From Chrysophaeum taylorii (lineage: Eukaryota > Sar > Pelagophyceae > Pelagomonadales > Pelagomonadaceae), in assembly GCA_029834535.1 (NCBI GenBank), contig JAQMWT010000038.1, positions 62,001 through 126,000 of the forward strand: a DNA stretch of 64,000 nucleotides. The letters run 5' to 3'. The position numbers were made by a program, and so were the translations under genes. Shown here piece after piece: positions 6,301 through 63,676 of the stretch. Each line of letters starts with the position of its first letter. Position 1 is the stretch's first letter. The notes under the pieces are model-generated. The model ran no database searches and was not told the DNA's origin. It was given only the letters and a program-made list of their open reading frames with translations.

Positions 6301-8054
6301 CAGAAGAAGAGAGCAGTGACGGCGTTGTCGGAGTCGCTTGAAAGAAGCCACCAGAACGACCGCTCAGCTACGGAATCGAAGCCGCAGCCGACATGGAACC
6401 GATCGGCACCGACTGTGACGATCAACCGATGATGAATGAATATACGGATGCATTCTGGAAAGACGAAATGGGCGAGTTATGGGAGAGGTCCTTTGCTCCC
6501 GAGAACGCCGAAGATCGGGATCCCCTACCAGCATTGATTCCCTCCGAGATTGTCATGGAGGAAGAGCGGAAGGCACCAGATAAAGAGGCTGCCGCGAGCG
6601 CTGCGTCGATGACGCCGACGACAGATGATACGAGTGCTCAAGCCGCAGTGTCGATGCCCAACCCCGGCGACGAGCGAGTCAGAGACCAATGTTCTCACAC
6701 TTCGTTAACGCCGCGAGACGGCCAGACTATCGAAGATGATTTGGTTACCCTAAGTTGCTTGGATACGGGTACTCTTACGTTTATGGCCTGTCACATCTAC
6801 AGGAATCGTGACGGACCGAAATTCTCGACGACCATCGGTGTCGATGGAATGGCAGATGTTTCTTATATTTGCCGCCGCGAACTGGTCAGAAAGTTGGCCG
6901 AAAAAGATAAGTTGGCCAAAGATAAGCTGATTTTCGATGAAGGCGAGCTTCCGATCAAGCGTAAGCTGTACTGATCGGGGTTGAATCCGACGACGATCTA
7001 TCGTTGGATAGCGATCCGGGTTGCCGTCGCCGACGACATCGCTGCCCCCATTGTCGCTATTGTGGCCGACACCAACTATCTTTTCCTGTTTGGAGGACGC
7101 GATATCCGAGTTTTAGGAGCCGTCGTGGACTACCCTCACGATCGGATCTGTTTTTCATCGAACCCAAGTCGTCTACGGGCGCAAGAAGATTAAAGTCAAG
7201 GGTGAACGAGTCGATGCACCCATCGTGACCTTTCGATCTGTTTACGATCGAGACCCGATAACCGTGCCGATTTACAATCATCATCAGCGCGACGCATTTC
7301 GGCAGAGTCTCGACATGGTCAAGACTCGAGTTTACGCTCGTCTGAGCACGATTAAAGATCTCCGCAGCCCGCCGCCAGAACGAGCGGTAGCCTTGACGAC
7401 GCGCGGGCATTCTACGACCGAACTCTCCCCAGCTCGGGGAGAAGCCGCGCAGGAAGTGGTTGCTTACGCTTCGCGCGCGCTACAAATCAAGCCCGGTCGG
7501 ACTTGCAATTTACCGGTTATTTTGTCGAAGCCTATGGAAAAAGGACAGGTCTTCGTCGCTACGTTTGCTGAAAACGAGCAGTTGGGAATTGTCGAAGGGA
7601 TGTGTTCTTCTTGCGAAGAGCACGACAAGTCATCTGCTCGCGTGGCTGTTACTTCCACGCAAGAAGTGCCAACGGTCGTCACTCAAGGCGAGGTTCTCGC
7701 AATTGGCGATATCGTTCGGTACGAAGATGAGTTGAACGTTTTTTTCAGATCAACGAGCTTACGAAAGAATGTGAAGAAGGGTACGACAAGGGGAGCCTTT
7801 CCTTTCCTTCACCGTTTCCGTCGCTAGTCACTTGACGCGCTCTGACGAATCTCCCCTGCCGATGTTGCTGAGCACGGCGCAGAAGGACGCTCCAGCCGCT
7901 GCTGTGGGCGTGTCTTCCCCCGTACGACGACCCAAGCGAGACGACGATTTCGCTCGACGGTCTGAAGAATATGAGAAAATGTGCCGCGAGATCACCGAAG
8001 CAGAGATCCGCCGCCGATACGAAAAGGTTCATTGGCTTCCGATCACTTATCGCA

Positions 8055-8900
8055 AGGTGGTGATGCTGTTCAGTGGAGCCAGAGGCAGCACTTTAGGTCT
8101 CCAACGAGCCAACGAAATGTGTGGGACGTCGTTTCGAGTCGTGTTAGCACTCGATGCGTCGGACACCGCCAACAAGATCCACCGCAAGAATCTTCCGAAC
8201 ATTCCTGTGGTGCAGCACACGCTTTGTGGGCGCTATGTTACAACCTTACGGTTGATCGATTTTTTTTTACCTTACGCGGAAAGGTCGTCGTCGATGTGTA
8301 TCGAATCGTCACCCTGCGTACACTCCGCTCTGTGCAACTTGACTTCCAAAGATGTTGGGAAGGGAGTCACCGCCACCCACTGGACGATGAAATTGTGCAA
8401 GATGGCTGGTTTCTTCATGTGGTTGATAGAGCAGGTGGCCTCGATTATTACTTATGTTGCGCGTTTACACCCTTACGTGTACGTCGTCAATTTTTTACGA
8501 CATAACGCCCAGTTTGATGAGCTGTCGCGTGCGGTTGTTGGTTTCCAGCCATCCGCCCCATTTACGCGCAGTTCCCAAGACTTGCAAGAATATGCAACGA
8601 GAGTTCGCCGCTGCGCTTGGTTACGCAGACGAACGGCATTTACTTCAGATGAACAAACAATTTAGGATCATCACGAGCCGTGACAGACGCAGCTTATACC
8701 GTTACGCGTGTCCCACTTCGCGTAGGACCGCACCGTTCCGATTACAGATCTCTGAACCTGAAAATGACTTCGGAGTTGCTGACGATGCCCCTTGATTTTG
8801 ATTGGGCCCGCTTCTCCAGGACGACCTCGTTGAAACACTTGGCGTCCGTCGTGCCACCAGATACGATGGCTTTGTTGGTACCCGATCTGCACAACCCTGG
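8055..8900 (+). mobile_element. C5-cytosine DNA methyltransferase-like domain inside gypsy element 1
   Basis: The stretch has the order of landmarks of C5-cytosine methyltransferases: a SAM-binding motif I-like segment (FSGARGSTLGLQRAN), then VVLALDAS as the following acidic motif, a Pro-Cys pair in the position of the catalytic motif IV, an IEQV segment in the position of motif VI, and a late LASVVPPDTMALLV segment resembling motif X (IGN.VPP...). It lies between the protease-like and reverse-transcriptase parts and aligns along its length with the domain at 58.6-59.5 kb in element 2, which is easier to read. The domain belongs to the element and shares its fossil state. Known C5 methyltransferases transfer a methyl group from SAM to cytosine in DNA; activity here is not claimed. 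Confidence 0.65.
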
Positions 8901-11900
8901 GACCAACGATTTTCGCTTGAGCGGCGAGGCTTTGCCGTTCGCGTTGAGTCCTGTTGACCGACCGTTTGATTATTATTCGTAAATCGATGAAACCACCCTT
9001 CGTCACGTACAAGTTCCGCTACTAAAGACGCGCGCGCGTGTCGTAAGATGGGTGTCGACTGATGATCTCCAAGATCGCACCAGATGGAAACCTCCAGAGG
9101 TGCCTTTGCTTCCGCCTGCAACAGATGCGCCGGGTCGTCTCATGCTTCTTCTGCTGCCCCCCCCCCGACAACCAAATTTGGACGTTCCGCCAGATCCTGA
9201 GCGAGATCGGGAACCGAAGATTAAAAGAGCGAGCCGAGCGTTCGTGTCAAAGGCGAGAAGATCAACAAAAGCCACCCGGAAGTGAGACTAAAATATGAGA
9301 AAAAGTTCGACGTGCCATGGAAAGATGCGCCGCGCGATGCTGATGGTGCACCGCTGCCGCAAACTCCCGAGCATGTCAAGGATACCCCCGTTATGAAAGT
9401 GAAGATTCCTACGAAGGAAGAAGTTGACAAGGTTGTTCAGGAGCTTGGAATTCCTGACAATCCGCACTTAGATGACGATGCGAAGCTGATGCTCCGTCAC
9501 TGTGTGCAATATTCTTGGGCCTTTTTCGACCAGAGTATGAGACCTGTGGACTCGCCTCCTGTATCTCTACGATTCAAAGACGCGAATCCGCGACCCGATT
9601 AAGATGACGCCCTACCGACTGACGCATGCGAAGCTCGATTGTCTCCGCGAGCAGATCAGTGAGTGGTGTCGGGATGGAGTCATTCGCCCGGCCAACTCAC
9701 CTTGGGGCTTTCCGGTGTTGATGCTTCCCAAGAAAGGAAAGGATCAGAGATTGGAACGTCAAACGCGTTCCGTGCTGCAATTGACTTACGTCAGCTCAAC
9801 GATCAATAATTGGTCAACGACAGTTGGCCGAATATTCGACAAGACGATGCTTTAGCTTTTCTCGCCATGCGACGATGGCGGATATGCATCGATATCAGAT
9901 GGGGATACCACAACCTTCGGTCTGGATCCAGCAGCAGCGCAAGACGCTGTCACGATGGGTAGCCCACTTGGCGCTCATAGTTTCTTGCGATTACCTCTGG
10001 GTGTGAAGACGGCCGGAGCTCTTTTCTGCAAGCAAATGGCGAGCGACCTTTCGAAATGGATGTATCGAGACTTGGTTGCGTTTGTTGACGATATTATGAT
10101 GGGATCCAACGATCTTCATCGACATTTACAAGTTTTGATCGAGAAGTTATGTGTCATTTGGCACAGAGAGGGTACAGCGGTCGAACCGCAAAGTTCCACC
10201 TTCTCAAGGATGAGATAGAATTTCTGGGACACATTTCGACCCCAGAAGGCTTGAAGCCGAATCCGAAGACGCTGGAAGCACTCCAGAAGATGCCGATTCC
10301 AGGTACTTTACCGAATACTTCTCCGAAGACCCAGATACGCTCTTCCATCGGCATGAGTAATTACTGCCGGCGATATGTGAAATGCTACTCGAAGATTTTG
10401 GAACCGCTGAGACGATTATGTCTCGAAGGTGTAAAGTTCGAGTGGACGGTCAAAAGGCTTGGGATGCGATTATTGAAGCTTTGGTTGATTCCAGAGGAGT
10501 CTACCACCCCGATTATGATCTGCCCTTTCAGATCCGATCCGATGCTTCCAAGGATGGACTTGGAGCATATATCTTCCTGATTGCCGAAGTCAAGGACAAG
10601 GCAGGAAGAGTGACTCGAGAAGAGCGAGTGATTGAATACTGGAGCCGAGCCGTGCCGAAGGAGATGCGCAATTATGAGCCCCGTCGGCTGGAGCTGCTGG
10701 CTGTTATCCTTTCTCTGGAGCACTTTCGAGCCTACATCGAAGGGCATCGGACTGTTTTGGAGACCGATCACCGAGATTTGACGTTTTCGTACGTAAGGCG
10801 ACGCACGGACAGCTTGCTCGTTGGGCGATGCGCCTCGCCAATTTTGACCCCGAACTTGGCTACAAGCCGGGAAAGTCACCGGGAATGAGTATCCCTGACT
10901 GTCTCTCCCGCAATCCGATAGATCATGTCATCGAGACTGACGAGTTTGGAGAACCTTTGAACCACGCGTATTTAGTGTTCCAAGAGCTTCCCCGACCTGT
11001 TGATGACCGAGGAGTTCCCGTCTCCGGCTGCCACTTCATATTGTCGTTTGTTTCGACCGAACTGCCGGAAGACGAGGAAGAAGATCCCGAAACAGATCCG
11101 ATGAGATTGGCTACGTCTCGCGCTACGAGACAACGTCGGAAGAACCGCGTGCGCGATGAGCCGCAGCTCTTCAAGGACGCAGCCGCCTACAAGGATTATA
11201 TTGATATAATTCCCGATAATATGACGCTCGATGAGATCGCACGCGAGCAAGAGTCTGATGCTACTTAAGAGGATATTCGCTATCGGATGGCCAAAGGTCA
11301 GACGACGCGACGTTACCGAGCGAACGAACGATATGAAGTTGTGAAAGACATTCTTTACCGCATTTCTGCTGATTTGCACCCGATGATTGTGGCCCCTGCC
11401 ACGTTGCGCAAGCGCATTATTCGACTCTACCATGACACTCCGGTTAACGGTGGTCATACGGGACGTCACAGTACTGTCCAGGCTATCCAGGAACGATTTT
11501 GGTGGCCTCACGTGTCGAACGAAGTAGGAGTCTTCATTGCTGAATGTTTAGTTTGCCAGAAAGCTCGTACGCCTAAGCCGAAACGAGCTGGACTCTTGCA
11601 ACAGCCTGTCTACGATGGTGATGGCGCTGTTCTAAGCATGGATTTATTTGGACCATTGCCTAGCGCTTGTCCCGAGACGTATCTTCTAGTGTTTTTTGAT
11701 CCGTTCTCGCACTTCTTGATTTTGGATGTTCTGAACTACAAGACCGCAGAATCCGTGCTTGAGTCTTTCGTCATTAACATCTTCCTCTAAGGCTACTTGT
11801 CCCAGATGATTCGTACCGACAACGGTAAAGAGTTCGTGAACAAGTTGATGCGCGAGTTTTGCCATCTCTTCAACACGCGATACCAAACTACGATCCCCTA

Positions 11901-13123
11901 TCATGCCCAGTCGAACCCCCCTGCTGAGCGCGTGAACCGATTTATCAAGGCCTTCCTCCGTGCCTGCCTTCAGGGCCGGAACATCACGGATTGGCCCGAC
12001 TTTGCCCACTATATTGCGTTTTGCTACAACCGCAAGCTTATTCCAGGCACGCAGATTTCTCCCTTTATGCTACGCTTGAACCGTCAGCGGATGTTGCCGA
12101 CCGATTATACGCTTATGGATTTCGATACCAGACTGTTGCCAAAGACTCGCTCTGATGCAGTCGCTGAAACTCGTGAACGATTGAAGTATTATACGAAGAT
12201 CGTCCACGAAGCTCGCGATAAAGCTTTGAAGAAACAACGATTGGCTTACAACGCCGACCTTGTCGATGTCGAATACAAGGAAGGATCGCATGTTTTGCTC
12301 TACATTCCTTTCCTTCAGAACAAGCTTCGACCGGAATGGCGAGTGCCGTTTATTATCAAGGAACGCCCTTCCCCGGTCACCTATAGGATTGAGTCTCTCG
12401 ACTCTCCGCCCGAAGAACGACGTGTTCATGTTAGTCAGATCACGCCTGTGATGGTTCCCCCGATCGTTGATCAAGTCATCCGCAAACCCGAAGAAACCTT
12501 CCGTGATGATTATCAGCACGGTAAGTTTGTTGTTTTCTCCGGATTCCTGACCGAAAGCGCTCTGATTGGCGCAAGAAGATCTATGTTGCTGAAGTTTGCG
12601 AGCCTTACGAGTACCAGAATGATCGTGTTGCTCTACATTTCTATTCCGATTTGGGTCCGAACGACGATGTCGCTTATTTCAAGGCGACCTCTCACCTTTC
12701 GAACCGCAAGCTCAAGCCTGAGTACAAGGACGTTGACGGTCGCAGTTTCATCGACAAGTCCAAGATCTCGTCCAGCACAACTCCTTTTGTCACGGATTTC
12801 GCTCCGCACGAGATTGATGTGTTGGTCCCCAAGTTTACTTTACGCAGTGGTGGTCGAGTTCCCGAACCGATCATCACCCGCGTTTACAAGAAGATTCGTG
12901 CACGAGATGCTCGTAAGGCGACGAAGCCGCGCTCCTCGCGCTAGCCGCTCGCTGGGGCAGCTCGTATTCTCACCAGAAAGAAGAGTCCTGTGGTGGAAAC
13001 TCCCGCCTCCTAAGGCTTACCTCTCAATTATTCCACCCGCTTATCAGGGGCACCCACCCTACTCCGTTCTGATGATGTCAGTTTTCTCTATGACATCATC
13101 TTCCGTGATTTCTGTGATTCAAG

Positions 13124-27665: not shown

Positions 27666-27873
27666 GACCGACAACCGACCGGGAGGGAGATCCCCCCCCC
27701 CCCCCTCATTCTCAAAAGGTCAGGGTTGAAGGTCAAGGTTTGTGCAAGTCAAATTGCGCCTCACAAAAAAGGAAGAGTTTTAGGTACATATAGAGGGAGG
27801 GAGGGAGTACTAGCTACACCTATCGATCGATCGATCGATGTTGCGGAGCTGAGGCTGAGGATAGTGGGAAGGG

Positions 27874-51449: not shown

Positions 51450-54400
51450 GTGCTCGGAGACGAGTCGGCGAGTGCGGTTGACTCGTCTGCAGGTGCGCGA
51501 GACTCGCGTCGGCAACGAGGAGCACCTTGACAGGGATGGTCGCCTCGCGGAGCGCGGCGGCGAACTCGTTGAGCGGCTGCTCGGGCGGCGTCGCGAGGTA
51601 AGCGTCGAGCGCGACGACCAGAAGCACGGGGTCCTCGCTCTTGGCGAGCGCGGCTCTAGTCGCGGCGAGGGTCGCGTCGCCGCGGCGGCAATGCTGCGCG
51701 TGCTCTGCGATCCGCCGCGCGAGAATTCCCCCGCCCGGACTTTGGTCGGCCCAGCGCTTGAACGCGATCTCGGGTCCCGAGCCAGAGAAACCGGAGAGAG
51801 ACCAGTCCTTCAGCGCCTCGGCGAGGGTCGCGACGACGCGCAGCACGCGCCGGAGCCGCCCGTCGAGCGCGTCCGCTTCGTACGTAGTCGCAGAAACGTC
51901 GACGACCACCTTGAACCGTCCGGGCCGTTTCGCGAGGATCCGACGACGGCAAACGTTCGCATCACCGAGGACTGCGTCGACGAGCCTCCCGTCGTCGAGC
52001 TCGCCGTGCGTCTGGCGCTTGGCCCAAACCCGCGCCTCGGCCGAAAGGATGCCTCGCACGAGCGCGACGTCGTACGCTGTCGTTAGCGTTCCGTAAATAT
52101 CGCCCGTATCGGCCCGGCATTCGTCCCTGGTCGTCGTCGCCTCTTCTACGACCTCGACGCTCGAAAGTCTCATCTCCTGCCCGTTGCTGCTGCTGCTGCT
52201 TCTCGCGAAGCCCCCGTTTTCATCCTGATGTTGTGCGTTGTTCTCACCTTTGTTGTCGTCTTCCGCGCCGCCACCTTCTTCATCTTCTGTTGCTCGTGCG
52301 TCCACAGGTTCTTCTTCTTCTTCTTCTTCTTCTTCTTGCTGTTGTTGTTGTTGTTGTGACGCATGATCATCATCATCATCGTTCGGCTGTTCTGATGAAT
52401 GGTGTTCGTCAACTTGGCACAAGAAATTGTCATCAGGATCCTCGAGACCTTGGAGGCGAGCGTCGAAGACTCTCCGCACCGTGTCGCGAATTTTAGGGTG
52501 CTCAAAGGCTAAAAGATCCTCGAGGGCTTCGTGGAGATCGTCGGGGAAGTGGTGGAGGTGCCGGGCGACGCGACAGAGGTCTCGCGTCGAGTATGGATAG
52601 GCGAGGCGGCCGGCGTCGGCTAAGGCCCGCAACTCGGCAAAAGCGTCGACGATCGCTCGGAGTTTTCTGCTGTCCACATTCGGCGCGATGGAAGTTGCCA
52701 CCCGGAGTTCAGACTCGGGATCGGGCGGATCGAGGACGATGACGGTCGAGAAAAGGTCTGCACACTCGGCATAGAGATCGATGCCCGTAAACGGATATCC
52801 GGGACGGTTCGCGAGCACGATAATCCGGAAACCGGGACTCGGTTCCAGGCGCGAGCCATCGGGCAACGAGAGCGGGACAACATCGGAGAGCAGCGCTTTG
52901 AGGATCCTTGCGACTTCGGGCGGCGCCTTGTCTGCCTCGTCGACGACAACGACGCGACCGCGCCTCGCGGCCGTCACGATCGGCGACGGCCGCCACCCGA
53001 ACTCGCGACGAGGCGAAATTTCTGGCGTCAAGAGGAGTTGCGACACGGTCGAGTCGCGGTGCAGTTGGATGTAGTCGCGCCGCTCCTCCGAAAAGAGCGT
53101 GTCGACGACGAGATTTTTTCCTACACCCTGATTCCCGACGAGGAGCGCGTGGCCGCGACTGGCCGCGAGTCTCTTCAGAGCTCGCGACTGCGGCGGCGTG
53201 AGGAAAGAACACCCGTCTTGTTCTTCTTTTTCTTCTTCTTCTAAAGAAGAAGAAGAAGAAGAAAGTTCAATGGGGGGGGCGAGGTCATCGAGCGCTTGGC
53301 GCAGGGTCGCGCGGTCCGCACCCCATCGCAGCTGGATTCCAAACGCCGAATCGATGGCGGATCGCAAGTTGCCGTTCGCCTCGCGCGAGGCGCGCGCGAG
53401 CGCTACGAGCTGCCGCGGCTGCGGGTTGGGGCCGAGGAACTGTAGCGCCGGTCCTCCGAGGATGGCCCTTTGCTCCTCTGGAGTCAGGTTCGGGAGCACG
53501 TGCGTCGTCTGGAAACCGCCAGGCATCCGTCTCGTCGCGGTAGCAACGAGTCGGAAGCCGGGTTTCGCTTCGAGGCGCGAACCGTCCGGCAAACCCAAGA
53601 ACCCGTGGCTGGCGAGCGTCCCCAACTCGACCTCGGGCAGGCGGTCGATCCCGTCGAGCACGACGAGGCCGCCCGTGCGGAGGGCTGTGGTGAGGGGCGT
53701 GTCGATCCACGTCGTAGACGACCCTTCGCCGTGACGTCGTTGCGCGAGATCTCGAGTCGCGAGGTCTGCGTGGCACGCGAGCGTCCACAGCGGCTCGTAG
53801 CCGATAAGCGCGGCGAAGGCGCGCACGACGGTCGCCTTCCCGGCGCCGCGCGGCCCAACGACCAGGAGGCACCGAGCGCCGGCCAGATGGTCTACGACGA
53901 GGTCTCTCGCGACGCGTCGGCGCGAAACCGCAAGAGCTTTGTAAAGCGCCGTATCGCCCGTTCTTTTGTTGGTGGGGACGCGCTTGGCGGCGAACTCGAT
54001 GGCCTGCGGCAGCACGCCCTCGATCAACCCGAGCGGCTCCTCGTCGGTCGTGCAGCGACCGCGTGACCTCGCTTCGGCCCGCGCTCTCGAGCCGCCGATC
54101 GCCGCGACCGCGTCTGCCAAACAATATTCTTCTTCGTATGAGGAGGAGGTCACGACGCGCGCCGCGAAGCGCGAACGCAAGGGTGGATCCAACGTCTTGT
54201 GCGTGGCGGCGATCGCCACCACAATAAAGCCGGGCTGCGCCTCGAGCATGCCGTCGTCCAGACCTATCCTCCTGTTCTCGAGAAGCTCGTGCAAGACGAC
54301 CAGCGCGTTGGGCTCTGCGCGGTCGATGCCGTCCAAAAGAAGCGGAACCCCCCGGCGCGCTGCGGCAACGGCGGGGGCGTCGACGCGCACGACCGCGCCG

Positions 54401-54852
54401 TCCCTCATTTCGAGTCGTTGCCTCAGATCCGATCCGCACGCGTCGCGAGTCATCAAGAAGTATTCGAACGACCGACCTTCGAGCCACGCCAGCGCCACGT
54501 CGAGCCCCCTGCCAATCAGCACCACGTCCTCCCTCAACTCCGCTTTGCGCTCGAGCCACCGCAGCATTCGCTGGCCCTCCGCGTCGAGGACACGTCCAAG
54601 GCACCTGCCGGTGACCCACCCTGCGCAAGGCTCACAAATCCGCACCCGTCGCACATCCCGAACCCACCGCTCCTCTTCCACAACCACCTCGGTTCCCTTC
54701 GCGAGGGTACAAAGAGCTTCCGTCGATAGGTCCCACCCACTCCGGACGCACGCTCCTGCTTTGCTTCGAACAACACGCAATCGACGACGACGACGACGAC
54801 CACACTGCATTTTTTTCGGATTTCGGTTTTTACCCTCACTCCTTGAATTCAT
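51358..54852 (-). CDS. VWA8: VWA8-like AAA+ ATPase with C-terminal VWA domain
   Basis: The 1164-residue protein has three AAA modules and a C-terminal von Willebrand A domain, the layout of VWA8. Module 1 (about 105-235) lacks a Walker A Lys but keeps FEYFLMTRDACGSDLRQRLE and LLLDGIDRAEPNALVVLHEL. Module 2 has Walker A GPRGAGKA (333-340) and LVVLDGIDRLP. Module 3 has GNQGVGKN (573-580) and VVVVDEADKAPPEVARIL. An acidic Gln/Glu/Asp-rich linker leads to the VWA domain (from about 985; RFKVVVDVSATTYEAD, a partial MIDAS). It is shorter than animal VWA8 (about 1900 residues), which is mitochondrial or peroxisomal. The N-terminus is Arg-rich, with M15 as an alternative start. The gypsy element 2 LTR begins 6 bp upstream of the ATG. 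Confidence 0.85.
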   Translation of the reverse strand: MNSRSEGKNRNPKKMQCGRRRRRRLRVVRSKAGACVRSGWDLSTEALCTLAKGTEVVVEEERWVRDVRRVRICEPCAGWVTGRCLGRVLDAEGQRMLRWLERKAELREDVVLIGRGLDVALAWLEGRSFEYFLMTRDACGSDLRQRLEMRDGAVVRVDAPAVAAARRGVPLLLDGIDRAEPNALVVLHELLENRRIGLDDGMLEAQPGFIVVAIAATHKTLDPPLRSRFAARVVTSSSYEEEYCLADAVAAIGGSRARAEARSRGRCTTDEEPLGLIEGVLPQAIEFAAKRVPTNKRTGDTALYKALAVSRRRVARDLVVDHLAGARCLLVVGPRGAGKATVVRAFAALIGYEPLWTLACHADLATRDLAQRRHGEGSSTTWIDTPLTTALRTGGLVVLDGIDRLPEVELGTLASHGFLGLPDGSRLEAKPGFRLVATATRRMPGGFQTTHVLPNLTPEEQRAILGGPALQFLGPNPQPRQLVALARASREANGNLRSAIDSAFGIQLRWGADRATLRQALDDLAPPIELSSSSSSLEEEEKEEQDGCSFLTPPQSRALKRLAASRGHALLVGNQGVGKNLVVDTLFSEERRDYIQLHRDSTVSQLLLTPEISPRREFGWRPSPIVTAARRGRVVVVDEADKAPPEVARILKALLSDVVPLSLPDGSRLEPSPGFRIIVLANRPGYPFTGIDLYAECADLFSTVIVLDPPDPESELRVATSIAPNVDSRKLRAIVDAFAELRALADAGRLAYPYSTRDLCRVARHLHHFPDDLHEALEDLLAFEHPKIRDTVRRVFDARLQGLEDPDDNFLCQVDEHHSSEQPNDDDDDHASQQQQQQQEEEEEEEEEPVDARATEDEEGGGAEDDNKGENNAQHQDENGGFARSSSSSNGQEMRLSSVEVVEEATTTRDECRADTGDIYGTLTTAYDVALVRGILSAEARVWAKRQTHGELDDGRLVDAVLGDANVCRRRILAKRPGRFKVVVDVSATTYEADALDGRLRRVLRVVATLAEALKDWSLSGFSGSGPEIAFKRWADQSPGGGILARRIAEHAQHCRRGDATLAATRAALAKSEDPVLLVVALDAYLATPPEQPLNEFAAALREATIPVKVLLVADASLAHLQTSQPHSPTRLRALIDKLPPGTAIPAADSNNIGAALEAALRPT

Positions 54853-54857
54853 ACCCG

Positions 54858-55208
54858 TGTGGCAGTAACGCCCATTTCCCCCGCTTGCCTGCCTGCCACC
54901 TGACTTACCCTGATTGTTGCCTTTTATTGACCTTGCATTTATGAGGGGGGGGTGTCATCTCGACACCTTCCTTCACCTGCTGCGCTTCCACTACTGGACC
55001 CAATGTACCGGGCATTTTTGTATTGCTTTTAAGAATATCTTCTTGATATTACCTACCCTCTTTTGACTGTCCGATTTCGTGATGGCGTGAGGTATTACGC
55101 TGAGATCGGGCGTGTGGTGGTTTCACCCGCGGTTCGGGTTGGGAGGAAGGGTTGTTGAGACCCCCGGTCCGGCCAGGAGGGGCGGGTATCTGAGAGAAAA
55201 CCACTACA
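54858..55208 (+). repeat. 5' LTR of gypsy element 2
   Basis: This 351-bp copy pairs with 62654-62979. Differences are mainly short insertions or losses around 54963-55060. The first base lies 6 bp upstream of the VWA8 start codon on the other strand. Confidence 0.88.
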
Positions 55209-55406
55209 GTGGTCTCAGAAACGGGAATCGATAGTCCAACTCCCGGACTATCGATCGATCTCCTGTTTTTCGGCGGCGAGTCGGTTCGTAACGGTCGAGT
55301 GAGTGCGAAGCCGACGCATTTGTGGGTGAAGATCCAGAGGATCACGGGTACCGCCGCGGGGTTCATTTTACGTGATTCGGATCGAACGGGGAGCGGAGTC
55401 ACTACG

Positions 55407-55971: not shown

Positions 55972-56038
55972 CACAGGGGTATATATAGCCCCGGGCACTC
56001 GCACACACCAGGACCGGCTTTCCTACCCTCACCTTTTG
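55972..56038 (+). promoter_or_regulatory. TATA-containing block, copy 1
   Basis: A 67-bp block with GGGGTATATATAGCCCCGGG is repeated at 56344-56410 with one mismatch. The strong TATA sequence and CT-rich downstream part look like a core promoter within the element leader. Confidence 0.5.
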
Positions 56039-56343: not shown

Positions 56344-56410
56344 CACAGGGGTATATATAGCCCCGGGCACTCGCACACACCAGGACCGGCATTCCTACCC
56401 TCACCTTTTG
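56344..56410 (+). promoter_or_regulatory. TATA-containing block, copy 2, ahead of the gag-like region
   Basis: Second copy of the 67-bp block at 55972. The gag-like reading frame begins around its end. The duplication encloses about 300 bp of leader that includes several CCCATCGTCT/ATGTTCATCT motifs. Confidence 0.5.
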
Positions 56411-58605
56411 AGATCATCTGATAGCCTCGACAGCCCCCCAAGCGTGGTCATGCTTCCGGATCCTCGCGGCGGCGAAGGGGGAGCTACGGTTGCGTCAGAC
56501 GCAACTTCAAGACAAGGTGAGCCGACGTTCCCGTACGCACGACCCTACGAACGTGCGATGAATACTACGGAGTCATCTCGAGCGGAACCCGAACAGTTTA
56601 CGGCGATGCGTGGACCAGAGGAGAGTGCACCTCCTAGGCCACCATCTGTGAATACGAGAGGGACAGATTTTCGCGGGGATGTCGACCCCGAGGTTCTGCA
56701 GACCATCAACGAACGATTCGAGATGTACCAGTCGCAGATGGAGCAAATCATACGTGAACTTGAGAACACCCGCCGCGACGCTCAACAACAACGCTCAGAA
56801 GTGGAGCGACAGCGGATCGACAACGATCGACTTCGGCGAATGATGGAGGAATCCATGCGGGCGCATGCTCGAGAGGCACGGCCAACCTCTCCGAATGCTA
56901 CGCGTGTTACGCCCGACGACGATGATGACGCTGTATCGGCACTGACCGACGATCAGCCACCGCGAAGTCGACCGGAGCCTACCCCGCACCATCATACTGA
57001 CCCCGGTTCGGCGCGTCCTCGTGACGAAGAAGAAATACTTCGTATCAGGAAGGGAGCTGCTGGTATGACACGTATCACATTCTCGAATCTCACGGGGCAA
57101 ATTACCAAGGACCGTGATGAGGTGGACGCGTGGTGGATGCAATTGCGGCGTATGATGGAGGGAAAGATTGATAAACCCTCAATAGCGATGAACGTGATTG
57201 GAGGCGAGTATCAACTCGCCCCTATGGGAGCTTATCGCAAGTGGGAAGTTGAACGACCGCAGATGTGGAAACAATACAAGGATGGGACCATCACAATGAA
57301 AGAGTTGCGCCAGCATGATGAGGACTGTCTGGATGCTATGCAAGAAGCGACGAAGCTTCCTTGTCCACCTCGGGCTACGGTTGAGGAGCTTGAACGTGAA
57401 TGGTTCAATTTACGGCAAGGGAATTTGTCACGAGATCCGCCTCTTTGGCGTATGTGCCTGTGGCTATCTCTTCGCAAGATGGTTCGAAATATTCCATCAT
57501 CGCTGCCGGCTTGGATGGCATGGCTGATTCCCCGTACATCGATCACCGCTTGTATCGCAAACTTGATCGTGACGGCAAAATCATCTATCATCAGCCACTC
57601 CCTACGATTCGTACTCTAAATGGGTCAGGAGGCTCGGGAGCTGCTATTCGAGAATGGGTCATCCTCCGGATCTCCTTGGTGCCGACGACATCCATGCTGC
57701 TCATGTTCTTCGTTGGTCGAACGAATGGGCAGTTACTATTAGGAGCACGAGAATTACGACTCTTGGGTACGATTTTGGATTATGCGACAGAGCTATTTTT
57801 CGGCGTTCTGAAGTGACCATTGGAGTTCTCAAGAATCGGACTTCCGCCTCGCCACAAGACCAGCATGGAATTGTCCTTTACAATGATGCATTCGATGCGA
57901 CTCCGCAGGTAGTGCAGATGTTCCCGACAGCTAAGCTTGCTGTGCAATACGGAAACATCCAAACTTGGACGCCAGTTGGTAAACCGTGGAGTTATGACAG
58001 TCTATTGCGTTCTATTCGTATCAGAGCGAATCACCATCACATTCCTTCCGGTGATCAGACTGCTGGAAAAGCTGAAGACCAACTTGAATGCCCTGTAGAC
58101 GAGGAAGATATCATCCCTCATTTCGCGTACGTGACGAGTACCCGATTTCTTCTTCCAAGCCAACCGTACTTCTTGGAGATGGAGTGCGATGTGCCGCTGG
58201 AAAAGGGTCACGTATTCCGAGCTCATCGGTCACTCCTCCAAGATCTCCGCCTTGTACCCGGCTCCTATTCATCGTATTGTGCCGATGAGCCCAACGAAGT
58301 TCACGTGGCTGTGGAGCACATTGGTGACGAACCCATTGGTATCGACCCCGAAGTCCCGGTGGTCGAAGGCGAGATCATACCGCATGAAGGATGTGTCAAC
58401 ATGCAGCTAGAAGCCACTGATGACGTGTGTCATGCCACTCTTACGGCTGGTGTTGACGACGACGAAGTCAAGGAGGATGTCTTGAGTGACAAACCTCCTC
58501 CTCAGCCACCTCCAGATGAAGAAGTGAAAAAAACACCAGAAATGGAGATGGAGGCGACTGTTAAGGAGCTGCTATCTGAGCACGCCTCTTTGGTTTGGAT
58601 ACCCA

Positions 58606-59490
58606 TCACCTACACCTTTGTCGTCGTCTATTTTGCTGGCGCTGGAGGATCAACGTTGGGTATTCGGCGATGCAATGAGCTATATGGCAGTTCATTTCGC
58701 ATTGTCCTGGCTTTGGATGCTTGTCCTCAAGCCCGAGCCACCTTTGAACTCAATTTTCCGAAGATTCCCTATGTTTTGCATGAGTTGGGGAAATCTCATC
58801 GTCGTACATACGACTTGGTGTTGTCGTATTTACACTCAGATTTTAGGAAGCACTCTTATTTTCACGCCAGTCCGCCGTGTATCTATGGATCGACTGCCAA
58901 TTTGCACTACAGGGACGCACGCAAGGGCGCTACTATTACTTCTTGGGTCCTGCGTCATTTCCGCAACGCACCTTATGTGATTGGACGATGGACACTCGAG
59001 CACGAACCATCAGTGATCCCTTTGGTGCATCACCAATTTTATGTGCCGCGTATTGTTGATTTCTATAGTATCACGCCAGAGCTGCTGTGCTCGCGCACGC
59101 GCCTACTTGCTTGCAATGTTGGCTTGGAACTGCCGTTATTATCGCGTGTACCACCGAATTTACGGGACCGTTTTGGCCCAGCGTTGGGATTTACAGGTGG
59201 TCACCCGCTCATTATAGTGAACAGTTTCTCATCTACGCGCCCGGCTATCGGCCCTGCCTTCACGGTGACGCGCAATAAGCTCCGCTTAGGACCTCATTTC
59301 TCGAACACCCGTCCACTCACGTTGCAGATGCACCAGGAAATTATGACCATTCCTGCTACGTGGCAATGGGGTGCGACAGTTTCCGAGACAGTAGCTATGA
59401 AGATGCTTGGCAGTATGGTGCCACCCGCGACTATGACGCGGATTGCGCTAGCAGTGCACAATTCGTTTGAACCTTCACTTCGAAATTTGG
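58606..59490 (+). mobile_element. C5-cytosine DNA methyltransferase domain inside gypsy element 2
   Basis: The landmarks of C5-cytosine methyltransferases appear in the correct order. Motif I is VVYFAGAGGSTLGIRRCNEL (SAM binding, compare LFSGAGGLSLGF), followed by RIVLALDACPQARATFELNF (motif II). Motif IV is HASPPCIYGSTAN with the catalytic Pro-Cys. WTLEHEPSV stands at motif VI (ENV), CSRTRLLACN at motif VIII (Q.R.R), and RPLTLQMHQEIMTIPATWQW at motif IX. LGSMVPPATMTRIALAVHN matches motif X (IGN.VPP.....A). The region between VIII and IX, which holds the target-recognition part, is short. Enzymes of this family methylate cytosine in DNA using SAM. It lies between the protease-like and RT parts exactly as in element 1. 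Whether it was ever active cannot be told from sequence alone. Confidence 0.82.
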
Positions 59491-59874
59491 GTAAGTTGCG
59501 GAATATTGCGACGACTACGCTAGCCCGACCTGATCACCATATTCTACGGTTTTCACCTTTTGCTGTAGAGTCGCGCATTCCAACGCTCGACCCTGCCACT
59601 CGAAGTGTATCATGGATTGCGCCCGATGAACTGTATTCTTCTGCGAGTCCTGCACCATCCGCTGCTGCCACCACCACCCCGCCACCGCCTTCAGTTACAT
59701 CGCCTGGGACGGCTTCATCTTTTGCAGGGGGCACCGTCGCCACTGCTGTTATGCAGAGCAACCAAGTTGATAACCAGCCCTCCGCAACTGCTGAAGAAGA
59801 AGGCACCGCGAAAGAGCGACCAGCGTATTTCAATACGTACGACGTTCCGTGGGCGGACACGCCTCACGACGAAC

Positions 59875-60156
59875 TAACTAACTAACTTCAGACCTCTCCC
59901 GAGCATGGGAGCCAGGCCGGACCGACAGGTGCCAGTCCGGAATCACGGGCCTGTAGACGAGGAGCGCCGAAAGGTCGGTCGGCGGAGAGTGACCATCAAG
60001 CTTGTCGCCATGCGACGAGGAGACCGCGATGTGACTGACAACCAGCTCGTCGATAACCTTCCGTCTTCGCCCCCCGGCCATACCCCGCCCCACTGCGAAC
60101 GTTCCGGCTGCCAACCGGCCCGCCCGGGAGGCGAATAGGTGCCAACCTACGCCGGG
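59875..60156 (-). mobile_element. SINE-like repeat, copy 2 (inside gypsy element 2)
   Basis: About 282 bp match copy 1 at 42586-42869, including GAGCATGGGAGCCAGGCCGG, GTCGGCGGAGAGTGACCATC and CCAACCTACGCCGGG. The AGTT-type tail (minus strand) has about three units. No target duplication is obvious here. It lies between the methyltransferase and RT parts of the element, so it arrived after the element was in place or with a copied parent. Confidence 0.75.
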
Positions 60157-62653
60157 AGGGCGGATGCCCTCGCAAGGCTCAGGATTCATGAGGCACCGTC
60201 CTCCATCGCAACCACAGTCGGCGATCAGGGTCACGACGAACATGGTCAACCTTCACCGGTGATGCCTCCTCATTTAGCGGATCAGGAGAGCATGCAGGTC
60301 ATCCCTCCGACCGTCGCGCAGGTCGAAGAGGTGATGACTGAATTGGTATTACAGAGCATCCTGCCTTAAATGATGACGAGAAGTTGATGATGAAGCCTTT
60401 AATCTCGTATTCGTGGGCATTTTTCGATGATGTGATGAGACCTGTTGATTCACCAGAAGTGACGCTCCGGTTCAAAGAAGAGAACCCGACTCCCTTCAAA
60501 CTCTCGCCATATCGGTTGTCGAAAGAAAAGATTGAATGTTTGCGGATGCAGATTGAAGCATGGACCCGAGACGGAGTTATTCGTCCCGCGAATTCTCCGT
60601 GGTGCTGAGCCTGGCACTTCCAATGCTTACAGAGCAGCTGTCGACCTACGGCGCCTCAATGCATTGCTCAAGGATGATAGCTGGCCGAGTGTGAGCATGA
60701 CTGACGCGTTGATGTTTCTCATTGACAAGTTTTGTCGTTCCAGTTTGGATATTCGTTGGGGCTATCACAATTTACGATTGTCGCTGGATGCACAAGATGT
60801 GGTCACCTTCACTAGTCCTCTGGGAGCGTACAGCTACATGCGTCTACCTTTGGGAGTCAAACCAGCCGGAAGTTTGTTTTGCAAGCAGTTGAACACTGAC
60901 TTGTCGCAATGGCTATATCGTGATCTCGTGGCATGTACGCCGGTCACGCAGATACAAAGAATCACTTGCAGTGCCTTGTGCAAGTTATTCCCCATCTCGC
61001 CTTGAAGGAGTACAGCGCCAAGATCAAGAAGATTCATTTTATGCAAGAAGTCATTGAGTTTTTGGGTCATTTATCTACCCCGAACGGACTTCTTCCATCA
61101 CCAAGATCTTTAGAAGCCATCAGACACATGCCAATTCCTGGCACTTTGTCGGATGCTGACCCTAAGAAGCAAGTGCGATCTTTCCTTGGAATGGGGAGCT
61201 TTTGCCGGCGTTATGTAAGGAATTTTGCGAAAGTTGCAGAGCCATTAAGACAACTGACGTTGCCGGACGTGAAATTCAAGTGGACGAAAGAGTGTCAGGA
61301 AGCTTGGGATGCCATCATCGAGGCTATTGTCACGTCGAAGGGCGTCTATCATCCTGATTACTCATTACCTTTTTACATTCGAGCTGATGCTTCCGCGCAT
61401 GGGTTGGGTGCTTACCTATTTCAAAAAGTACCAGTCGTTGACGACGATGGAAGAGAAAGAATCGAAGAGAGAGTTATAGAGTACTGGAGTCGAACCGTGC
61501 CTAAGTCGATGAGGAAGTATGATCCTCGGCGCTTGGAACTCCTCGCAGTACTCTCTGCTCTCGAAAATTTCCGATTTTATATCGAAGGTCATCATACGAA
61601 GTTAGAGACGGCTCATCGTAATTTGACGTTTCTGCGGGATTCGAATCATACGTCTGGACAGTTAGCACGATGGGCTATGCGGCTTGCTGCGTTCGACCGG
61701 GAGCCCGGATACAAACCTGGAAGCTCCCCTGGCATGCGTATTCCGGATTGTCTGTCGCGCAACCCTATCGACAAATTGATCGAGAAAGACGAAGACGGGG
61801 AACCGATCAATGAAGCTTTTTTGATTTTCCAAGAAATCCCCACCGATGTCCCTGGCGCCGCTTGCTTCACCTTCTCTTCGGTGACGATGCCTATGCTGAC
61901 GGACAGCGGACCCACCGCAGCTATGGTAGCAGTTAGTACGCGACAGAACGTACAACCGCCTCAATTCTCGTACGACTCTGAGCCAGTTGACTCCGTCGAA
62001 CGTCTCCCTTTTGCGGATCAAGCGGAGGATGAGATCACACTCGATGAGATAGCGAAAGAACAAGCTGACGGATTACTACTCGGACGTTGAGCGGATTTTT
62101 GTGCGTCTCAAGACAAAAAGCGAGCCCAGGAGACCACCCACAGTCTCCGAAAAGAGGCAGAAAGAAGGCCGGAGAGACCAACCATAGTCTCTGAGACCAA
62201 CCATAGTCTCTGGCGAGGCAAAAGGCTTGTGCCGTGTAAGTCCGTCGCACCGGTCAACCGCGCGAGTCGAACAGTAGCCGGCAAATTTTGCTGCTCGACG
62301 AGAAGTTTTGGTGTTCGAGCTAGCCGTTGATATCCGAGAGAAACCGCACCATGGAAACTAGAGGAGACTGACGTTTGTTCTGCGACCGCTTCTGCTGAAG
62401 AACGACGCTTATGACCAGAAGACAAAGATCCTGACGGAGGTAGCTTCACATGCCTACGACCCAACATGGAGGGCTGTGAACCCTGTGTGACTGATTTTCG
62501 CCCGGATGAAATCGATGTCCTCGTCACTAACTTCGGTCTGCACAGCAACAAAGTTCCTGCTGATGTAGCTGAACGAGCTTATCGTACCATTCGTGAGCAT
62601 GACCTTCGTCACCCTTGAAGTCGAGGACGACTTCATCTCAAGTAGGGGGCTCC

Positions 62654-62979
62654 TGTGGCAGTAACGCCCATTTCCCCCACTTGCCTGCCTGCCACCTGAC
62701 TTACCCTGATTGTTGCCCTGGTATTGACCTTGCATTTATGAGGGGGGGTGTCATCTCGACACCTTCGCTTCCACTGGACCCAATGTACCGGGCATTTGTA
62801 TTGCTTTCTTCCTGTCTTCTTGATATTACCCTCTTTTGATTGTCCGATTTCGTGATGGCGTGAGGTATTACGCTGAGATCGGGCGTGTGGTGGTTTCACC
62901 CGTGGTTCGGGTTGGGAGGAAGGGTTGTTGAGGCCCCCGGTCCGGCCAGGAGGGGCGGGTATCTGAGAAAACCACTACA
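62654..62979 (+). repeat. 3' LTR of gypsy element 2
   Basis: This 326-bp partner of 54858-55208 is preceded by a purine-rich GTAGGGGGCTCC that fits a polypurine tract. It is followed by CCCG, the matching target duplication. Confidence 0.88.
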
Positions 62980-63250
62980 CCCGCTGCAGCAGCGGCGTTT
63001 AGTGGCTCGGGCGACGCCGCCAAGGAAAAATATTATGTCGTTGGTCACAACTATTCGAATCGTCTCGCAACCCTGCTGATAATCCCACCGCGCCTGAGGG
63101 AGGCGTCGTATTTGTACGTTGTTGGATGAGGGCAGTTTTTCAGTAGCGCGAGGTCGCGGCCGCAACCCGCGTCCACAGGCCAGTTGTGTGGTGGCATTAT
63201 CCTCGCGCAGCGCATCGCAGCCGAGTTCGTACTGTGCGAGCATGTGGCAC

Positions 63251-63676
63251 TTAGATGCGAGACAAAAGCGCCTCGTCGCTTCGACAAAAACGCCTCGTCG
63301 GTTCGACAAAAGCGCTTCGACAAAAGCGCCTCGTCGGTTCGACAAAAGCGCTTCGACAAAAGCGCCTCGTCGCTTCGACAAAAGCGCCTCGTCGCTTCGA
63401 CAAAAGCGCCTCGTCGCTTCGACAAAAGCGCCTCGTTGCTTCGACAAAAACGCCTCGTCGCTTCGAAAATGTCTTTTGGGACTCCGCAATGAAATCAACG
63501 AAAGCCTCGACCGCCGACGCCGGCTTTATTTTGAGCGAGTCCCAGATGATAGAAGGTAGGAGATCACGAGGTTGACGCTCCGCAATCCGCTTGGAATGAA
63601 TGCTCGCATGCAACGACACGATTTGCATCCACGCCACGGCCTTCGTCAAGGCAAAGGGCTTGTTGCTACGCGGCAT
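63251..63676 (-). pseudogene. Possible gene remnant read into the minisatellite
   Basis: The part outside the repeat (about 63465-63676) codes on the minus strand for a segment that looks coding: KAVAWMQIVSLHASIHSKR, then RDLLPSIIWDSLKIKPASAV and EAFVDFIAESQKTFSK. Upstream (63680-64000) the frame is lost and only short fragments remain, so this could be a decayed gene, a transposase piece or one exon. Nothing identifiable was found in 62980-63250. Confidence 0.25.
63261..63464. repeat. 22-bp minisatellite
   Basis: Ten tandem units fill exactly 204 bp: eight full units of GACAAAAGCGCCTCGTCGCTTC (spoken as GACAAAAGCGCCTCGTCGCT plus TC) and two 14-bp short units lacking CCTCGTCG. Units differ by single bases. 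The array has no stop in most frames on either strand, so long artificial frames run through it. Confidence 0.92.

What the first reader, a model, noticed from the sequence alone, without database searches (positions are those of the whole stretch)
58606..59490. Cytosine-5 DNA methyltransferase domain carried by a Ty3/gypsy retrotransposon in a stramenopile-like genome
Motifs I, II, IV (Pro-Cys), VI, VIII, IX and X of C5-cytosine methyltransferases are readable in order between the protease-like and reverse-transcriptase parts of gypsy element 2. Retrotransposon-borne C5 methyltransferases are known in Symbiodinium-type dinoflagellates and in the charophyte Klebsormidium. I know of no report in aureochrome-bearing algae. 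The inference is that elements of this family encoded an enzyme that methylated DNA, perhaps their own copies.
Basis: partly seen in the sequence, partly recalled or inferred. Interest (0 to 1): 0.92.

Follow-up and report, generated by a model that had tools for sequence, protein, structure and literature searches.

The report
Jumping genes carrying DNA-methylating enzyme
In the genome of an alga that looks like a photosynthetic stramenopile, large families of retrotransposons carry, inside their own protein, what looks like a cytosine DNA methyltransferase kept intact by natural selection; this is known from dinoflagellates and one green alga, and I found no clear report for this group.

Summary
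Confirmed and extended. The interval encodes a C5-cytosine methyltransferase (MTase) domain: PF00145 E 5.9e-10, motifs I-X in order. It lies in a Ty3/gypsy element with LTRs at 54858-55208 and 62654-62979 and a CCCG target duplication. The window copy is broken and lacks integrase; a relative on C311 has MTase-RT-RNaseH-integrase in one 2,115-aa frame. The MTase is listed at 125 places; 80 of 107 listed RT places have it just upstream. Selection on it matches RT (dN/dS about 0.06 each; flanking stretches 0.12-0.41). A second gypsy family in the window (6.6-12.9 kb) carries a 36%-identical MTase; a copia family (105 listed places) carries another, without detectable profile similarity. An apparently misbinned contig elsewhere holds the same gypsy order. 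The host has DNMT5, an SRA protein and DNMT2; no DNMT1/3 was recognised in incomplete searches. Retrotransposon DNMTs are known (PMC5890265), so this is a new variant. Methylation is untested, and no significant CpG-decay footprint was found.

The parts
54858..55208 (+). 5' LTR, TG...CA, 351 bp
   Evidence: Aligned with the 3' LTR; 21 differences in 325 ungapped sites
62654..62979 (+). 3' LTR, TG...CA, 326 bp
54854..54857 (+). target site duplication CCCG, left
   Evidence: Flanks printed; the partner is 62980-62983
62980..62983 (+). target site duplication CCCG, right
55209..55226 (+). putative primer-binding site directly after the LTR; the same bases follow the end of the LTR repeat of the C311 copy
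   Evidence: Sequence; tRNA match not tested
56408..57619 (+). gag-like ORF (403 aa)
   Evidence: tblastn of the C311 gag-position ORF, 38% identity over 56462-57427; no Pfam gag match
57430..57795 (+). protease-like stretch at the start of pol
   Evidence: tblastn of C311 pol residues 120-241, 74% identity; called protease from position and reading only, no Pfam hit
57654..59885 (+). 743-aa ORF holding the MTase
58587..59489 (+). C5-cytosine methyltransferase domain (the finding)
   Evidence: PF00145 E 5.9e-10; alignments A1, A3, A6
58632..58649 (+). motif I FAGAGG (SAM binding)
   Evidence: its three glycines are invariant in A6
58869..58880 (+). motif IV SPPC, catalytic Cys codon 58878-58880
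   Evidence: Cys in 27 of 27 copies and invariant in A6
58995..59003 (+). motif VI LEH, catalytic Glu codon 58998-59000
   Evidence: Glu in 25 of 27 copies and invariant in A6
59094..59102 (+). motif VIII RTR
   Evidence: Both Arg in 27 of 27 copies and invariant in A6
59406..59426 (+). motif X LGSMVPP (GS in place of GN)
   Evidence: in the C225 copy motifs IX-X are a PF00145 stretch of their own (profile 257-321)
60304..60933 (+). reverse transcriptase pieces in alternating frames
   Evidence: RVT_1 17.4 bits, under its cut-off
60933..62087 (+). end of RT and RNaseH (PF17917 E 2.2e-24)
62373..62615 (+). C-terminal end of pol; the integrase part is missing between 62069 and 62373
   Evidence: tblastn of C311 pol: residues 1565-2034 have no match in the element
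6600..12914 (+). second gypsy element of the window (family 1), pol co-linear with the first
   Evidence: tblastn of C311 pol
8021..8662 (+). MTase of gypsy element 1, motifs I-VI and an out-of-frame tail
   Evidence: 36% identity to the finding; 150 matches listed in the genome; this damaged copy itself scores only 13.9 bits with PF00145, open family members 27 bits
8653..8979 (+). MTase of gypsy element 1, motifs IX-X in another frame
   Evidence: 38% identity to the finding

Best explanation
These are Ty3/gypsy LTR retrotransposons whose pol polyprotein gained a C5-cytosine methyltransferase between protease and reverse transcriptase before the two gypsy families split. The domain travels with the element and is under selection as strong as that on RT. 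Most likely it methylates cytosines in the element's own reverse-transcribed or newly inserted DNA. The host's DNMT5 plus SRA maintenance system could then keep the mark, so new copies become quiet and less harmful, or recognisable as self. Shown: the domain, its place in pol, copy numbers (lower bounds), catalytic residues and purifying selection. Inferred: enzymatic activity, DNA (not RNA) as substrate, self-targeting and hand-over to DNMT5.
For: PF00145 over cut-off in open members of both gypsy families. A profile of four lineages (A6) finds 10 PDB sequences at E <= 1; all 10 belong to the C5-methyltransferase family (HaeIII 2, 3g7u 1, DNMT2 4, DNMT1 3), best HaeIII at E 0.0032. One uninterrupted 2,115-aa frame on C311 holds MTase, RT, RNaseH and integrase, and a protease-like stretch by position. 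Lineage comparison C311 against family 2: MTase dN 0.09-0.10, dS 1.5-1.6, ratio 0.06; RT-RNaseH 0.064; RT start 0.059; stretches before and after the MTase 0.18, 0.29, 0.41; in family 1 MTase 0.044, RT 0.062, flanks 0.12 and 0.16. Catalytic Cys, Glu, both Arg and motif I glycines are invariant in six sequences 27-83% identical to the finding. Of ten canonical residues (recalled from M.HhaI, and listed when the alignment was already in view) 7 are invariant, P 5.7e-6, indicative only. Host toolkit: DNMT5, one match, one SRA-domain match, DNMT2. Precedent: the retrotransposon DNMTs tested by de Mendoza and colleagues methylated CG de novo (PMC5890265 abstract text seen, section 9).
Against: Motif VI has Gln (His in the window copy) in place of Asn, and motif X lacks its Asn. 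TIGR00675 is far below cut-off. PF00145 finds neither L068 at E <= 0.01 nor P0001 at E <= 1. Single-sequence PDB searches find no MTase: window ORF 0 hits at E <= 1, L068 domain 10 hits, none an MTase. Narrower profiles give only E 0.33 (A1) and 0.17 (A3, DNMT2 on top). The structure model is poor (pLDDT 46). CpG decay is not significantly raised in the elements (five tests, P 0.09-0.50), and CpG observed/expected is 1.0-1.3, so no long-standing methylation with decay is visible from sequence. No methylome or expression data. The window copy is dead. dS near saturation makes the lineage ratios rough.
Confidence: 0.62

Rival explanations
1. The domain folds like a C5-MTase but acts as a structural or nucleic-acid-binding part of the polyprotein, without catalysis.
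For: Motif VI Asn and motif X Asn are replaced; purifying selection shows importance, not catalysis; no significant CpG-decay footprint.
Against: Cys98, Glu138, Arg170, Arg172 and the motif I glycines are among the 23 of 218 gap-free columns that stay invariant; a non-catalytic domain would be expected to lose the catalytic Cys in some lineage.
Confidence: 0.17
2. It is an RNA methyltransferase of DNMT2-like action, on the tRNA primer or the element's RNA.
For: The A3 profile has DNMT2 chains at the top (E 0.17) and 4 of the 10 A6 matches are DNMT2 (E 0.03-0.07); the host DNMT2 also has SPPC (L001).
Against: With L068 added and two near-duplicates dropped (A6), the best matches are the DNA methylase HaeIII and 3g7u, described as a putative DNA modification methyltransferase. 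The bases after PPC do not follow the host DNMT2 (SPPCQPHT against SPPCIYGS). The retrotransposon DNMTs tested in PMC5890265 methylated CG in DNA.
Confidence: 0.12
3. The MTase is a passenger: a one-off capture spread by hitchhiking and now decaying.
For: The window copy and many others are broken.
Against: dN/dS of 0.04-0.06 between lineages equals that of RT, and flanking stretches are looser; two gypsy families, a relative from another source and a copia family all keep an MTase.
Confidence: 0.03
4. The MTase protects the host or element against DNA viruses or nucleases, as proposed in general by Morozov and colleagues (PMC6338049).
For: Proposed there as speculation (passages read); algae have large DNA viruses (recalled).
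Against: Nothing in these calls points to viral DNA as target.
Confidence: 0.04

Closest known systems
KnitGypsy-Dnmt3 of Klebsormidium nitens (PMC5890265; section 9 read)
   Same: C5 MTase inside the pol ORF of an LTR gypsy element, several copies, intronless, purifying selection (Ka/Ks < 0.2 there; 0.04-0.21 here)
   Different: There the MTase is of Dnmt3 type and the repeats are described as DIRS-like; here the LTRs are ordinary with a target duplication, motif VI is EQ, and DNMT3 membership could not be shown. Its place within pol was not compared. Another eukaryotic supergroup.
SymbioLINE-Dnmt and SymbioDIRS-Dnmt3 of Symbiodinium (PMC5890265; passages read)
   Same: Hundreds of retrotransposon-borne DNMTs in one algal genome, in more than one element class
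   Different: LINE and DIRS elements there; the passages say that Symbiodinium Copia elements lack a DNMT, whereas here gypsy and copia LTR elements carry one
LTR Copia and DIRS elements with DNMT3 (PMC12344493; passages read)
   Same: The 2025 paper mentions DNMT3 embedded in LTR Copia and DIRS elements, referring to streptophytes and dinoflagellates
   Different: Stramenopile, Aureococcus and pelagophyte have 0 occurrences in that main text
DNA transposons with methyltransferases: Mariner-1_OLpv with a C5-MTase protein (PMC3627910) and the Ectocarpus Sola1-1_Ec32 protein with an N4/N6 MTase (PMC12477816); passages read
   Same: Mobile elements that encode their own DNA MTase; Ectocarpus is a stramenopile
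   Different: DNA transposons, separate proteins; the Ectocarpus enzyme is not a C5 MTase, and that species lacks cytosine methylation according to the paper
M.HaeIII and other C5 methylases (PDB 3ubt, 1dct, 3g7u)
   Same: Motif order; best PDB matches of the A6 profile
   Different: Free-standing enzymes; E only 0.003-0.004
DNMT2 / TRDMT1
   Same: SPPC in motif IV; weak profile matches
   Different: The host has its own separate DNMT2 (L001, PDB 1g55 E 3.9e-39)

Membership tests
C5-cytosine methyltransferase (PF00145) | Profile match over the curated cut-off | tested here: met
   39.5 bits for the slice, 35.7 for the ORF, cut-off 22; open family 1 members 27 bits; window element 1 piece 13.9 bits, not over
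C5-cytosine methyltransferase (PF00145) | Motif I F-x-G-x-G-G | tested here: met
   FAGAGG; glycines invariant in A6; F is Y in P0001 and L068; motif definition recalled
C5-cytosine methyltransferase (PF00145) | Motif IV catalytic Cys after Pro | tested here: met
   SPPC; Cys in 27 of 27 copies, Pro in 26; P0001 and L068 have SPSC
C5-cytosine methyltransferase (PF00145) | Motif VI catalytic Glu | tested here: met
   25 of 27 copies, invariant in A6
C5-cytosine methyltransferase (PF00145) | Motif VI Asn after Glu (ENV) and motif X Asn (GN) | tested here: not met
   EQ or EH, and GS or AS, in the gypsy families; L068 has EQ and AN; DNMT3 also lacks GN (recalled)
C5-cytosine methyltransferase (PF00145) | Motif VIII R-x-R | tested here: met
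   RTR, RVR, RKR; both Arg invariant in A6
C5-cytosine methyltransferase (PF00145) | Class I MTase fold | tested here: inconclusive
C5-cytosine methyltransferase (PF00145) | Methyl transfer to cytosine C5 in DNA | not testable with these tools
   Needs an enzyme assay
Ty3/gypsy LTR retrotransposon | Domain order PR-RT-RNaseH-INT | tested here: met
   RVT_1, RT_RNaseH, Integrase_H2C2 and rve in order in C311 pol; rve 29.4 bits is under its cut-off of 32.6; PR from position only; the window copy lacks INT
Ty3/gypsy LTR retrotransposon | LTRs TG...CA with short target duplication | tested here: met
   54858-55208 / 62654-62979, CCCG
DNMT3 (type known from gypsy and DIRS elements) | Placement with DNMT3 in sequence | tested here: inconclusive
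   No DNMT3 among the 10 PDB profile matches; DNMT3 tops Foldseek with a low-confidence model; no tree with DNMT1-6 built
DNMT2 | Significant match to DNMT2 | tested here: inconclusive
   E 0.17-0.30 with A3 and 0.03-0.07 with A6
Common origin of gypsy and copia MTases | Profile-profile homology | tested here: inconclusive
   hhalign probability 1.4 and 0.6; shallow alignments

The most novel reading that the evidence does not exclude
In a host that kept only maintenance methylation (DNMT5 plus SRA) and has no recognisable DNMT1 or DNMT3, retrotransposons of two LTR superfamilies have each taken up an MTase and now supply the de novo cytosine methylation of the genome; mobile elements write marks that the host only copies.
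Probability: 0.18. Interest if true: 0.92.

Novelty: new variant of a known kind. Interest (0 to 1): 0.72.

Why it matters
It adds what seems to be an unreported eukaryotic lineage to the few with retrotransposon-borne DNMTs, with two LTR superfamilies in one genome doing the same thing with unlike enzymes, and a relative from another source showing that the gypsy version is not confined to this species. DNMT5 is thought to be a maintenance enzyme without de novo activity (recalled; a title to that effect is in the reference list seen), so how DNMT5-only genomes renew methylation is an open question. A host with DNMT5, SRA and hundreds of element-borne MTases makes it directly testable with one methylome and one enzyme assay.

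Tried and rejected
Chance hit or one-off insertion: rejected by copy number, linkage to RT and selection.

Host gene captured once in this window only: rejected.

CpG-decay footprint as a sign of methylation: singletons counted in five sets (30 family 2 MTase loci; 8 RT loci; two sets of 5 of the 18 family 1 loci; 6 copia loci). Odds ratios 1.39, 1.80, 1.31, 1.60 (gypsy) and 0.81 (copia), P 0.18, 0.09, 0.09, 0.11, 0.50. The four gypsy sets lean upward, none significantly. One family 1 set has high counts of all changes; the cause was not examined and the set was kept.

Relatives in the 5.8-billion protein collection: three searches gave 0, 1 and 2 proteins, each scoring only the roughly 8,000 candidates sharing most words. 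Viral contigs: three scans for the gypsy MTase and one for the copia MTase gave no relative (67). Phage records: one weak hit, an Aphanizomenon phage C5-MTase, E 4e-3. Bacterial and archaeal genome contigs: two loci. PDB search with the copia MTase alone: one chance hit.

Structure: first model pLDDT 36.5, not searched. Second model 46.2, searched and read with caution.

Species: a recalled 18S primer of Aureococcus anophagefferens has 0 exact matches in the assembly, and a paper search for that primer's name found nothing. That does not exclude the species if rDNA is missing; the window's GC is 57%. Species left open.

Rows dropped: one search used 27 of 30 fetched family 2 copies (three have another length), 19 of them stop-free; the 27 include the window copy. 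Its family 1 set of 12 included L051, which has a frame shift; one search repeats it with 11, and four more fetched family 1 loci tried gave no full-length piece. PF00145 in the own genome scored 123 of 474 candidates and did not list the finding's own place, so it cannot give counts. 41 of its 57 rows fall in copia places, two are host genes, two more are copia-type by reading (L003, L005), 12 were not read.

No tree with DNMT1-6 was built: I had no full reference sequences of DNMT1 or DNMT3 to hand.

Full report
OBSERVATION. The window is G000:C38:62001-126000 of a 70.8-Mb, 697-contig assembly. Frame 57654-59885 (+) is open for 743 aa. Pfam PF00145 matches it at E 8.6e-9 and the slice 58587-59489 at E 5.9e-10, both over the curated cut-off. 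Motifs I, II, IV, VI, VIII, IX and X can be read in order in the alignment of copies (motif names recalled). The NCBIfam dcm model is only marginal (E 0.0011).

THE ELEMENT. Two LTRs, 54858-55208 and 62654-62979, begin TG and end CA, differ at 21 of 325 ungapped sites, and are flanked by CCCG on both sides. A gag-like ORF, a protease-like stretch, the MTase, RT and RNaseH follow in order. The copy is broken: pieces lie in alternating frames, and pol residues 1565-2034, which hold most of the integrase, have no match. A relative on contig C311 has pol as one 2,115-aa frame with PF00145, RVT_1, RNaseH and Integrase_H2C2 over cut-off and rve just under it. On C225 gag, MTase and RT lie in one 2,129-aa frame. 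Protease and gag are named from position and from similarity among copies; Pfam finds neither.

COPIES. The slice finds 140 stretches in the genome (131 of 896 candidates scored, so a lower bound). They merge to 125 places. One search lists 110 RT-RNaseH stretches (107 of 1,120 candidates scored), which merge to 107 places; 80 of these have an MTase match within 4 kb upstream on the same strand, and 80 of 125 MTase places have RT-RNaseH downstream. Both lists are capped, so the rest are not shown to lack the partner.

SECOND GYPSY FAMILY. tblastn of C311 pol also hits window 6600-12914. The MTase there is read in two frames, 8021-8662 and 8653-8979; this damaged piece alone is under the PF00145 cut-off (13.9 bits), open family members are over it (27 bits). 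The family has 150 listed matches (150 of 1,047 candidates scored), a good part in frames of 1,000-3,067 aa. Pol of the two families is co-linear, 36% identical over 1,151 columns from upstream of the MTase into RT. So the MTase was most simply gained before they split.

COPIA FAMILY. A third set (L003-L008, L049) has an ORF in gag position without a Pfam match, an MTase with TLPCQ and ENV motifs (PF00145 E 1.1e-9), a weak integrase match (E 0.093, below cut-off) and RVT_2 (E 7.7e-41). It has 111 listed matches at 105 places (105 of 616 candidates scored). Its MTase dN/dS over 15 pairs of 6 copies (motifs I-VIII, 175 codons) averages 0.13. Profile comparison with the gypsy MTase finds no homology (probabilities 1.4 and 0.6). 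Independent capture and deep divergence cannot be told apart.

BEYOND THIS GENOME. In the 5.8-billion protein collection two relatives were found: P0001 (JGI, 322 aa) and P0003 (ENA, 169 aa), with about 8,000 candidates scored per search. A scan of bacterial and archaeal genomes found L068, filed as a Phycisphaerae MAG (isolate MED835, presumably marine). Its 6.7 kb are one open frame, with RVT_1, RNaseH and Integrase_H2C2, so apparently a misbinned gypsy element. The MTase lies before the RT; PF00145 does not detect it at E <= 0.01, but it aligns with C311 at 28% (E 8.7e-21), and RT to INT co-linearly at 28% (E 3.3e-69). The second locus, L069, is a free-standing MTase with an intein.

CATALYTIC RESIDUES. 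In alignment A6 (six sequences, 27-83% identical to the finding) 23 of 218 gap-free columns are invariant. They include the three motif I glycines, the catalytic Cys, the motif VI Glu and both Arg of motif VIII. Seven of ten canonical residues recalled from M.HhaI are invariant, P 5.7e-6; I listed the ten with the alignment in view, so this is indicative only. In 27 equal-length family 2 copies Cys98, Arg170 and Arg172 never change and Glu138 is kept in 25. The Asn of ENV and of motif X are replaced in the gypsy families. The A6 profile finds 10 PDB sequences at E <= 1, all of the C5-methyltransferase family, 4 of them DNMT2. Narrower profiles and single sequences find nothing significant. The structure model is poor (pLDDT 46); its matches to DNMT3 and many other class I MTases only agree with the fold.

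SELECTION. Between C311 and family 2 copies the MTase has dN 0.09-0.10 and dS 1.5-1.6, ratio 0.06. RT-RNaseH gives 0.064 and the RT start 0.059. The stretches before and after the MTase give 0.18, 0.29 and 0.41. In family 1 the MTase gives 0.044, RT 0.062 (64 codons), flanks 0.12 and 0.16. Within family 2 the MTase gives 0.21 (27 copies) or 0.19 (19 stop-free copies) and RT-RNaseH 0.32 (8 copies). dS near saturation makes single ratios rough; the contrast with the flanking stretches is the point. Selection shows that the domain matters to the element, not that it is catalytic.

HOST. The two best PF00145 matches in the genome are L001, a DNMT2 (PDB 1g55, E 3.9e-39), and L002, a DNMT5 (PDB 7r76, Cryptococcus Dnmt5 as I recall, filed as DNA repair protein Rad8; E 3e-143). 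DNMT5 has one match (21 of 21 candidates scored). One SRA-domain match is present. No DNMT1 or DNMT3 was recognised, but the PF00145 and TIGR00675 searches scored only 123 of 474 and 122 of 327 candidates, introns are ignored, and 12 rows were not read. The window holds a bZIP+PAS ORF (27865-29163) of aureochrome type.

METHYLATION FOOTPRINT. C-to-T changes are not significantly more frequent at CpG in any of five sets, though the four gypsy sets lean that way, and CpG is not depleted (observed/expected 1.0-1.3). This does not support long-term heavy methylation with decay, nor exclude methylation.

LITERATURE. De Mendoza and colleagues (PMC5890265; abstract and other passages and section 9 read) reported DNMTs in Symbiodinium LINE and DIRS elements and in a Klebsormidium gypsy pol ORF, with purifying selection, and de novo CG methylation by retrotransposon DNMTs. 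PMC12344493 (passages) mentions LTR Copia too. PMC9998398 (passages) surveys SAR DNMTs; its four uses of the word retrotransposon, as shown, report no carried DNMT in a stramenopile. PMC3627910 and PMC12477816 (passages) report methyltransferases in DNA transposons, one of them a non-C5 enzyme in the stramenopile Ectocarpus. PMC6338049 (passages) says in one sentence that adenine- and cytosine-methylase retrotransposons of gypsy and DIRS clades occur in stramenopiles among others, without separating the two kinds or naming a species; this weakens a claim of priority. The listings of searches (titles and starts of abstracts; in 22 and 83 only the first 20 of 2,278 and 12 of 42) show no report of a C5 MTase in a stramenopile retrotransposon. 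Subscription papers and preprints are not held.

VERDICT. It works most likely like the known retrotransposon DNMTs, by methylating element DNA; membership in DNMT3 is not shown. A new variant of a known kind.

Noticed in passing
window 6600-12914: Gypsy element 1 of the window also carries a diverged C5-MTase domain, and many listed members of its family score alike, so part of the family may have spread recently.
   Followed up: partly
L049 (C120:34300-44299), L003-L008: A copia-type family with 105 listed places carries a different C5-MTase-like domain upstream of RVT_2.
   Followed up: partly
L068 2989-3870: A contig filed as a Phycisphaerae MAG looks like a eukaryotic gypsy element with the same MTase-RT order, so apparently a binning error in a public genome.
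   Followed up: partly
L069 2959-6192: A bacterial or phage C5 methyltransferase interrupted by an intein (Hint and LAGLIDADG matches) at its motif IV, by reading directly before the catalytic Cys.
   Followed up: no
window 51358-54858: Five bases separate the gypsy element's 5' LTR from the first ATG of a 1,164-aa ORF with AAA_5 domains (midasin-like, recalled) on the other strand; possible insertion at a gene start or inside a gene.
   Followed up: no
window 63239-63479: Direct repeats with spacings of 22 and 14 bases just outside the 3' LTR.
   Followed up: no
window 16818-19478: An 887-aa frame with many Tudor-type repeats (14 Tudor_5 stretches).
   Followed up: no
window 55972-56038 and 56344-56410: A 67-base direct repeat with TATATATA about 1 kb inside the element, outside the LTR; perhaps an internal promoter duplication.
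   Followed up: no
P0001, P0003: Two short metagenome proteins join an unidentified upstream stretch to the same MTase; the stretch resembles the gypsy linker in layout only, BLASTP shows no similarity there.
   Followed up: partly
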